Position numbers and translations under genes: made by a program
NCBI RefSeq assembly: GCF_027579695.1
Contig: NC_083587.1
Span: forward strand, 39,323,732-39,387,731
Direction: 5' to 3'
Source: Neoarius graeffei
Taxonomy: Eukaryota > Chordata > Actinopteri > Siluriformes > Ariidae
DNA length: 64,000 nt
The notes under the pieces: model-generated
What the model was told of the DNA's origin: nothing
The model's database searches: none
What the model saw: only the letters and a program-made list of their open reading frames with translations
Shown: positions 58,288 to 60,318 of the stretch, in pieces
Layout of the letters: each line of letters begins with the position of its first letter
Position numbering within the stretch: position 1 is the stretch's first letter

Positions 58288-58627
58288 GACACACGTCACA
58301 GAAAATGAGCAGTTGCTTGTTGTTTTGTTGTTTACTAGGGTGAGTGTAGGAAAAAAGTTCAAAAGTAGAGTCTAAATGGTTCTTCAGTTTAGTTCAAGCA
58401 GAACCCTATAAAAGAGGATCTCCTTATTAGAGATGGTACAACCTTCCTATCGTCCTAATGAATAGTTAAATATCCAAAGAACCTTTAAGGGTGTCTTTGT
58501 TTTAAGAGTGTAGCAACTGAATAGACTTAAGTTATGCATGTAATAGGTAGAAGTTATGGTGGTACATATATTACACTGACTTTTCTTTCCGATGTGCAGT
58601 GGATATATAAAGTGTACACACCCTGTT
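58288..58627 (+). repeat. Left arm of a 340-bp inverted duplication
   Basis: It begins gacacacgtcacagaaaatg outside the Tc1 and ends ccctgtt within its left terminal repeat. It is ~98-99% identical by eye to the inverse of 59400-59739. Confidence 0.92.
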
Positions 58628-60318
58628 AAAATGATAGGTTTTTCTGATGTAAAATAATGGGACCATGATAAAATAATTTCAAAACTATTCCCACCTTTAA
58701 TGTGACCTATAACCTGTGCAATTCAATTGAAAAACAACAAATCTTTTCAGGGGGAAAAAAACGTACAATAAGCTGGTTGCATAAGCGTGCACACCTTTAA
58801 ACTAATACTTTGTTGAAGCACCTTTTGATTTCATTACAGCATTCAGTCTTTTTGGGTTGGAGTCTATCAGGCTGCCACATCTAGACTTGGCAATGTTTGC
58901 CCACTCTTCCTTGCAAAAGCGCTAAAATCTGTCAGATTGCGAGGGCATCTCTTGTGGACAGCCCTCTTCAGGTCACCCCACAGATTTTCAGTTGGATTTA
59001 GGTCTGGGCTCTGGCTGGGCCATTCCAAAACTTTTTTGGGGTCATTATCAGGCTGAAAGATGAAATTCCTCTTCAGCTTTCTAGCAGATACCTGAAGGTT
59101 TTGAGCCAAAATTGACTGGTATTTAGAACTGTTCATAATTCCCTCCACCTTGACTAAAGCCCCTATTCCAGCTGAAGAAAAACAACCCCAAAACATGATG
59201 CTGCCACCACCATGCTTCACCGTGGGTATGGTGTTCTTTTGGTGATGCGCAGTGTTGCTTTTGTGCTAAACATACCTTTTGGAATTGTGGCCAAAAAGTT
59301 CAACCTTGGTTTCATCAGACCATAACACATTTTCCCACAGGCTTTTGGGAGAGTTGATGTGGTTTTTTTTTTGCAAAATTTAGCCGGGCCTGGAAGAAAA
59401 ACAGGGTGTGTACACTTTATATATCCACTGTACATCAGAAAGAAAAGTCAGTATAATATATGTACCACCATAACTTCTACCTATTACATGCATAACTTAA
59501 GTCTATTCAGTTGCTACACTCTTAAAACAAAGACACCCTTAAAGGTTCTTTGGATATTTAACTATTCATTAGGACGATAGGAAGGTTGTACCATCTCTAA
59601 TAAGGAGATCCTCTTTTATAGGGTTCTGCTTGAACTAAACTGAAGAACCATTTAGACTCTACTTTTGAACTTTTTTCCTACACTCACCCTAGTAAACAAC
59701 AAAACAACAAGCAACTGTTCATTTTCTGTGACGTGTGTCTCCCTGACCAGTTTTCCTCTCGTCTTTTCATCAATTTTGGAGGGACGTCCAGTTCTCGGTA
59801 ATGTCACTGTTGTCCCATATTTTCTCCACTTCTTGTTGATGGTCTTCACTGTGCTCCATGGTATATCTAATGCCATGGAAATGTTTTTGTACCCTTCTCC
59901 TGACTGATACCTTTCAACAATGAGCTCCCTTTGATGCTTTGTAAGCTCTCTGTGAACCCTGGCTTTTGCTGGAGGATGCAACTGAGTAAATGTCTGAACT
60001 TTATTTGGGGTTAATCAGAGTCATTTTAATTGATGGCGGGTGTGAACCCAAAAAGACTGAATGTTGTAATTAAATCAAAAGGTGCTTCAACAAAGTATTA
60101 GTTTAAGGGTGTGCACACATACAACCAGCTTATTGCACATTTTTAATGTTTTATGTTTTCCCCCTGAACAGATTTGTTTGTTTTTCAATTGAATTGTACA
60201 GGTTATAGGTCACATTAAAGGTGGGAAAAGTTTTGAATTTAATTATCGTGGTCTCATTTTTTTTACATCAGAAAAACCTATCATTTTAACAGGGTGTGTA
60301 CACTTTTTATATCCACTG
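58597..60318 (-). mobile_element. Tc1 element with its middle replaced by an inverted copy of its own flank
   Basis: The terminal repeats start CAGTGGATATATAAAGTGTA (left) and, inverted on the right, CAGTGGATATAAAAAGTGTA. The minus-strand frame 59220-58867 has [29 protein letters not shown] and [20 protein letters not shown]. The N-terminal part at 59981-59652 has RELTKHQRELIVERYQSGEG and KKWRKYGTTVTLPRTGRPSK. Between the two halves, 59400-59739 is an inverted copy of 58288-58627 (flank plus 31 bp of terminal repeat). The PRD-like to early catalytic region of the transposase is missing. Confidence 0.92.
59400..59739 (-). repeat. Right (internal) arm of the 340-bp inverted duplication
   Basis: It lies inside the Tc1 and carries the 31-bp Tc1 terminus, a TA, and then flank sequence in inverted order. 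At the flank/terminus border it has TA where the outer copy has TG. Confidence 0.92.

What the first reader, a model, noticed from the sequence alone, without database searches (positions are those of the whole stretch)
58288..60318. Tc1 element carrying an inverted copy of its own left flank plus terminal repeat in place of its middle
59400-59739 is a near-identical inverted copy of 58288-58627, spanning 309 bp of host DNA outside the element and 31 bp of its left terminus. It sits between the two transposase halves and replaces the section between the DNA-binding and catalytic regions. This is what one expects if a double-strand gap left by Tc1 excision was filled by copying from the other broken end and then switching template. 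The internal copy keeps TA at the element border while the outer one has TG, so it preserves an older state of the target site. Single elements recording their own failed gap repair are rarely seen this clearly.
Basis: partly seen in the sequence, partly recalled or inferred. Interest (0 to 1): 0.75.

Follow-up and report, generated by a model that had tools for sequence, protein, structure and literature searches.

The report
Old transposon patched with its flank
An old, dead jumping gene in an animal (probably fish) chromosome seems to have been broken in its middle and repaired with a backwards copy of the DNA just beside it: a one-off repair scar of a known type, unusual mainly because the patch carries the element's own border.

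Summary
59400-59739 is an inverted copy (336 of 340 bases) of 58288-58627: 309 bp of left flank plus the first 31 bp of a Tc1 element. The inner copy keeps the TA border; the outer has TG. In the window's genome (2.34 Gb) the flank was found at two places only, these two. None of 29 related copies fetched has the insert; 28 show 117-158 bp there, 21 of them 135 bp. So it is a single local event.

The mechanism needs correcting. The patch spans flank and element end, so its template still held the element; a cleanly excised broken end could not provide it. The arms differ by 0.59% per copy, the element by 1.75% (private) to 3.86% (from consensus), so the patch looks about 3 to 7 times younger than the insertion. 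No young family copies were seen among those scored. The gap is central and small. The left junction is a 9-nt in-place inversion sharing 4 nt with the patch. Best reading: an internal break or stalled fork in an old Tc1, repaired by microhomology-guided template switching, the known "gap-filling" (Pack-TIR/MMBIR) process, not failed repair of an excision.

The parts
58597..60318 (-). Tc1-type element with remnants of its transposase (minus strand); 1722 bp here against 1532 bp in relative L006
   Evidence: Terminal inverted repeats, Pfam HTH_SB and DDE_3, Sleeping Beauty catalytic domain match E 1.8e-39, family copies in the same genome
58288..58627 (+). Outer arm: presumed template of the patch (309 nt flank + 31 nt element end)
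   Evidence: the flank part was found at only two places in the genome
58595..58596 (+). Left target-site dinucleotide, now TG (TA in the inner copy)
   Evidence: of 25 left borders scored, 22 are TA, 2 TG (this copy is one) and 1 CA
58597..58858 (+). Left terminal inverted repeat
   Evidence: 87.7% match to 60045-60318
58867..59265 (-). Catalytic half of transposase, degenerate (in-frame stop just upstream; a 15-residue gap against Sleeping Beauty)
59395..59403 (+). Left junction: 9-nt in-place inversion of the sequence relatives carry here; its last 4 nt (AACA) are also the first 4 nt of the patch. Only 59395-59399 lies outside the arm
   Evidence: 20 of 25 relatives counted read TGTTTTTCT, whose reverse complement is exactly 59395-59403
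59400..59739 (-). Inner arm: inverted copy of 58288-58627
   Evidence: 336 of 340 identical
59431..59432 (+). Inner copy of the left target-site border, TA
59740..60318 (+). Right half of the element; 59740-60014 carries the transposase N-terminal DNA-binding domain on the minus strand
60045..60318 (-). Right terminal inverted repeat
60319..60320 (+). Right target-site dinucleotide TA

Best explanation
A Tc1 element of an old, probably non-autonomous family was inserted at a TA. Much later a double-strand break or stalled fork occurred near its middle. Inferred path: the 3' end of the left half (...CTGGA) switched to the opposite strand and copied 9 nt back (the in-place inversion 59395-59403). 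It then used the microhomology AACA to re-prime on the element's left end, copied about 340 nt outward through the terminus into the flank, and was joined to the right half at 59739/59740 with about 1 nt of overlap. About 135 bp of element were lost. The template was an element-bearing DNA: the same molecule, its sister or the homologue. Afterwards the outer border mutated TA to TG. Shown: the structure, its uniqueness, the lost segment, the junction sequences and the divergence difference. Inferred: the break, the direction of synthesis and the polymerase pathway.
For: Structure and identity. Single copy: flank at 2 places genome-wide; 0 of 29 fetched relatives carry the insert: 28 show 117-158 bp between the halves, and the 29th (L009) has a 1.6-kb insert there with its own ~220-bp inverted ends, apparently a separate nested element. 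Age: arms 4/680 (0.59% per branch, 95% 0.16-1.5%); element 24 private (1.75%) or 53 consensus differences (3.86%) in 1374; equal-age P 0.022 / 3e-6; ML terminal branches 0.047 and 0.032 for the two halves. Family old: closest pair differs by 4.4% (left half, 30 copies) and 4.2% (right half, 19 copies); best full-length match 94% and 93% with L006 and part of L021 as queries. Central small gap: 0.53-0.62, 8.8% of L006. Junction: 9-nt in-place inversion; in 200,000 random draws 1 matched at that exact place and 0.07% anywhere within 30 nt on either strand (a post hoc test). Literature: inverted copy of a nearby template with microhomologies, and 'in-place inversions' (PMC8421209, passages); transposition-independent gap filling of TIR elements (PMC8277862, sections).
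Against: Gene conversion between the arms (0.77 kb apart) could make the patch look too young. The private-change test is only modest (P 0.022), and the consensus count may include ancestral subfamily changes. The two halves give unequal branch lengths: second longest of 30 on the left, fifth shortest of 19 on the right. An alternative source of the junction nucleotides exists: AGAAAAAC also occurs in reverse in the left end 13 nt away (simulated chance 0.1%). The reviewed theta polymerase is said to suppress snap-back synthesis (PMC9962433). No sister species, second haplotype or reads were available.
Confidence: 0.72

Rival explanations
1. One reading: transposase excised the element, both ends were refilled by SDSA from a sister chromatid still carrying the element, and one strand switched template into the left flank and end of the unexcised copy.
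For: Homology-dependent repair after excision is described for P and Tc1 elements (PMC3878927, passages). It gives the same end product as an internal break. A related transposase could act in trans on this family.
Against: Patch about 3-7 times younger than the insertion; no young family members among those scored; central 9% gap; in the published survey 91 of 97 primate cases had the unpatched element in outgroups (PMC8277862).
Confidence: 0.15
2. Assembly artefact: a piece of the other haplotype or a chimeric read was pasted in inverted orientation.
For: Arm divergence of 1.2% is within the range of allelic differences (recalled); no reads were examined and the sequencing method is unknown.
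Against: Only 38 contigs for 2.34 Gb, so a contiguous assembly; precise junctions with a loss of about 135 bp and a 9-nt in-place inversion; arms separated by 772 bp of element sequence rather than abutting as in fold-back reads.
Confidence: 0.06
3. Transposase-made product: hybrid-end transposition, or autointegration of the excised element into itself.
For: Autointegration occurs for Sleeping Beauty and yields inversions and deletions (PMC3952818, passages including the abstract).
Against: Neither inner junction lies at a transposon terminus with TA: one is 31 bp inside the end, the other 309 bp out in the flank. The described autointegration products come from a fully excised element, so they would not carry flank.
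Confidence: 0.02
4. The insert is a standard part of this element family, or the flank is itself a dispersed repeat.
For: The family is abundant (4065 first-look candidates, 40 scored).
Against: 0 of 29 fetched relatives have it; the flank was found at 2 places only.
Confidence: 0.01

Closest known systems
Single-copy Pack-TIRs formed by transposition-independent gap filling (Tan et al. 2021, PMC8277862)
   Same: TIR element (TcMariner is one of the two main superfamilies there), filler from close by, single copy, internal gap, patch younger than the insertion, microhomology at a breakpoint, a mutated TSD in their example too
   Different: Here the filler is the element's own immediate flank together with 31 bp of its own terminus; that survey discarded parental copies with a TE in the flanking 100 bp, so this sort of case would not be in its list
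MMBIR templated insertions (MMB-TI; PMC8421209)
   Same: Inserted sequence is an inverted copy of a nearby template, with microhomology and an in-place inversion at a junction
   Different: 340 nt long with the template 772 nt away; that paper's tool looks within 100 bp
Abortive/interrupted gap repair after transposon excision (Ac/Ds, P, Tc1; described in PMC3878927)
   Same: Internal deletion of an element by interrupted synthesis
   Different: Started by transposase excision, for which there is no sign here
Polymerase-theta templated insertions (PMC9962433, passages)
   Same: Short inverted templated insert at a junction (snap-back type)
   Different: Typical inserts are 3-10 nt; this one also has a 340-nt tract

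Membership tests
Tc1/mariner element (Sleeping Beauty group) | TA target-site duplication | tested here: met
   Right TA, inner copy of the left border TA; outer left now TG; family sample: 22 of 25 left and 13 of 16 right borders scored are TA
Tc1/mariner element (Sleeping Beauty group) | Inverted repeats and HTH + DDE transposase | tested here: met
   TIRs 58597-58858 / 60045-60318; HTH_SB and DDE_3; 5cr4_A E 1.8e-39; coding remnants only
Pack-TIR by gap filling | Internal sequence of 100-5000 bp between two parts of the same element, both ends kept | tested here: met
   340-nt insert (309 nt of it non-element), both termini present
Pack-TIR by gap filling | Unique parental copy with at least 90% identity | tested here: met
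   98.8%, one parental place found in the genome
Pack-TIR by gap filling | Parental copy without a TE in its flanking 100 bp (a filter of the published list) | tested here: not met
   The parental copy abuts and enters the element itself; so it works like a Pack-TIR but would not be counted in that list
Pack-TIR by gap filling | Element present without the filler in outgroups | not testable with these tools
   No relative genome held
MMBIR templated insertion | Inverted copy of a nearby template with microhomology at junctions | tested here: met
   Inverted, 772 nt away; AACA at the left junction; about 1 nt at the right junction, read by eye from the relatives' letters
Excision-induced abortive gap repair | Event dates from a time when the element or family was being excised | tested here: not met
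   Patch younger than insertion; no young copies among those scored. Excision without reinsertion, or by a foreign transposase, is not excluded

The most novel reading that the evidence does not exclude
The terminal inverted repeats themselves steer such repairs: a break in the middle of a TIR element folds back, re-primes on the element's own end and copies outward, so 'self-flank' patches like this one would be a recurrent class that the published survey filtered out because the parental copy touches a TE.
Probability: 0.12. Interest if true: 0.5.

Novelty: new member of a known kind. Interest (0 to 1): 0.27.

Why it matters
It is a clean, datable single-locus example in which insertion and patch can be timed separately from one genome. 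The timing separates 'failed repair after a jump' from 'later break in a dead element'. It also shows a blind spot: a survey that excludes parental copies next to a TE will miss patches taken from an element's own border.

Tried and rejected
Searches of viral contigs (exact 25-nt end pattern; protein: 11 stretches matched a peptide pattern, none confirmed), genome contigs (same pattern), plasmids and phages found no relative; these collections are of viruses, bacteria and archaea. DNA folding of 58288-58660 is unremarkable (z -0.78), so no strong hairpin in the template stretch explains the event. Rfam found nothing in the window. The first extraction of family copies had minus-strand loci the wrong way round; replaced. 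L009, the one relative without a measured spacer, has a 1.6-kb insert with its own ~220-bp inverted ends (97% alike): apparently an ordinary nested element, not a second case. One search looked in the 30 loci for matches between flank and interior: 11 hits, one of them this locus; the other ten lie in L009 (3), L011, L013, L019, L021, L022 and L030 (2). L009 was checked. Those of L011, L013, L019, L021 and L022 end at or near position 1500, where the left end begins, and those of L030 are 72-78% matches; I read them as right ends beyond my estimate of the element end or as neighbouring Tc1 copies, without checking each. Transposase products (hybrid ends, autointegration) rejected because neither inner junction is at a terminus.

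Full report
What is there. A Tc1-type element lies at 58597-60318 with terminal inverted repeats 58597-58858 and 60045-60318. It has a TG at the left target site and an intact TA at the right one. Its minus strand keeps an HTH_SB half (59652-60014) and a DDE_3 half (58867-59265) of a transposase. The latter's only PDB match at E 0.001 is the Sleeping Beauty catalytic domain (E 1.8e-39). The coding remnants have frame changes and an in-frame stop. Between the halves, 59400-59739 is the reverse complement of 58288-58627 with 4 differences in 340. That the host is a fish is my guess from the element type (recalled); no call names it.

Family context. The window lies in a 2.34-Gb genome of 38 contigs. 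That genome holds many candidate copies of the family (4065 at first look, 40 scored including this one). Of 29 relatives fetched (L002-L030), 28 have both halves with 117-158 bp between them, 135 bp in 21, and none has the patch. The 29th, L009, has a 1.6-kb insert there with ~220-bp inverted ends, apparently a separate nested element. Of the 28, 27 lack 23 bp that L021 keeps. Read by eye, L021's extra bases fit the protein of a more distant relative in the window (...[14 protein letters not shown]...), so the loss is the derived state and shifts the frame. The family is therefore probably a non-autonomous derivative, and the patch is unlikely to have broken a working transposase. Among nine other window ORFs scanned, three Tc1-type ones match HTH_Tnp_Tc3_2, one of them just below the curated cut-off; this domain lies in the section missing here (alignment) and was not found in this copy.

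Uniqueness. The 309-bp flank alone gave two candidates in the genome, both scored: the outer and the inner copy. That tool skips very common words.

Junctions. Family homology of the left half stops at 59394 (...CTGGA). Of 25 relatives counted, 20 continue TGTTTTTCT and five differ from it by one or two bases; three whose match ended one or two bases earlier were left out of that count. This copy reads AGAAAAACA at 59395-59403, the exact reverse complement, and its last four bases AACA are also the first four of the patch. In 200,000 random draws 1 gave that 9-mer at exactly this place, and 0.07% gave a match within 30 nt on either strand; this was designed after seeing the match. A second source is possible: AGAAAAAC lies in reverse in the left end 13 nt from the patch (0.1% of draws). 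The right junction shares about one base (C), read by eye. An inverted copy of a nearby template with microhomology, and in-place inversions, are reported marks of MMBIR-type template switching (PMC8421209, passages). Inverted snap-back inserts are also reported for polymerase theta, though the same review says its helicase domain suppresses snap-back (PMC9962433, passages).

Timing. Since the duplication the two arms have gained 4 differences in 680 bases (0.59% per copy; 95% 0.16-1.5%). The element differs from the family consensus at 53 of 1374 sites (3.86%), 24 of them private (1.75%) (30 copies for the left half, 19 for the right). Equal age has P = 3e-6 and 0.022 respectively; without CpG sites 22 of 1303 against 3 of about 660, P = 0.014 (the 3 and the 660 were set by hand). 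ML terminal branches of this copy are 0.047 (left half, second longest of 30) and 0.032 (right half, fifth shortest of 19). The closest pair differs by 4.4% (left) and 4.2% (right). In genome searches, each scoring 39 copies besides the query with overlapping sets, the best matches were: for this element, 93% for the left half and 94% for the whole right half, with right-half fragments of 260-315 bp at 96%; for L006, 94% full length and 95% over 1363 bp; for a 1056-bp part of L021, 93% full length and 95% over 843 bp. Short pieces of the terminal repeats match better (up to 97-98% over about 65-122 bp). The family thus shows no sign of movement at the time of the patch, among the copies scored. 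Caveats: gene conversion between arms would make the patch look too young, and copies beyond those scored were not compared.

Mechanism. The patch includes the flank/element border and 31 bp of the terminus, so its template carried the element; the other broken end after clean excision cannot be the source (that cut ends keep only a few element bases is recalled). The lost segment is 8.8% of L006 and lies at 0.53-0.62 of its length. Tan et al. report a median gap of 4.6%, breakpoints moderately skewed to the interior, 56.9% of fillers from within 15 kb (most of those under 5 kb), microhomology in 67.6% (median 2 bp), and unpatched orthologues in 91 of 97 primate cases. They conclude that internal breaks, not excision, make most single-copy Pack-TIRs (PMC8277862, sections read). 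This locus agrees in position, distance, microhomology, single copy and delay; its gap is larger than their median. Their pipeline removed parental copies with TEs in the flanking 100 bp (section read), so a patch taken from the element's own border would not appear in their list.

Literature coverage. Nine searches of the open PMC library listed no paper whose title or abstract start describes an element patched with its own inverted flank; most listed papers were not opened, and subscription papers are mostly not held, so absence from print is not claimed.

Border state. All four arm differences are G/C outside and A/T inside. For the border the TA inside is the expected ancestral state. In the family sample 3 of 25 left borders (this copy among them) and 3 of 16 right borders scored are not TA, so decay of the outer border is ordinary. 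For the other three differences the direction is unknown.

Verdict. Observation confirmed; template-switch repair supported; excision origin not supported. A neat member of a known class, modest interest.

Noticed in passing
window 13114-16861: Tandem array, about 47 copies of a 78-bp unit (GTTT runs plus ...CCAGAACGGAGTCCACCAGGGGGCGAGG...), with higher-order structure (also reported with period 310; 300-nt stretches 914 nt apart are up to 100% alike).
   Followed up: no
window 37565-37841: GC-rich 30-bp minisatellite, 9.2 copies, 96% matches.
   Followed up: no
window 575-916, 4233-4574, 7291-7634, 20008-20402, 44325-44732, 46193-46599, 50667-51043 and others: Many copies of one dispersed repeat, about 300-400 bp, some pairs 98-99% alike, in both orientations; it looks tRNA-SINE-like (recalled) and younger than the Tc1 family.
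   Followed up: no
window 23637-23981, 24097-24609, 34487-35199, 48421-49369, 56642-57082, 61964-62421: Six further stretches with decayed Tc1-type transposase remnants in the same 64 kb: four with Pfam matches, two (34487 and 61964) by DNA similarity to the element and reading frames by eye.
   Followed up: partly
L002-L030 against L021: 27 of 28 fetched copies with a measured spacer share the lack of 23 bp in the transposase region that L021 keeps: probably a non-autonomous derivative that spread widely.
   Followed up: partly
L033:3393-5036: Tc1 copy at C9:78.58 Mb interrupted by a 1.6-kb insert with ~220-bp inverted ends (97% alike), apparently a nested element.
   Followed up: partly
window 57882-58014: 48-nt inverted arms (81%) around ...CCCAGTGTTGAATTAACAC..., a MITE-like repeat left of the duplicated flank.
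   Followed up: no
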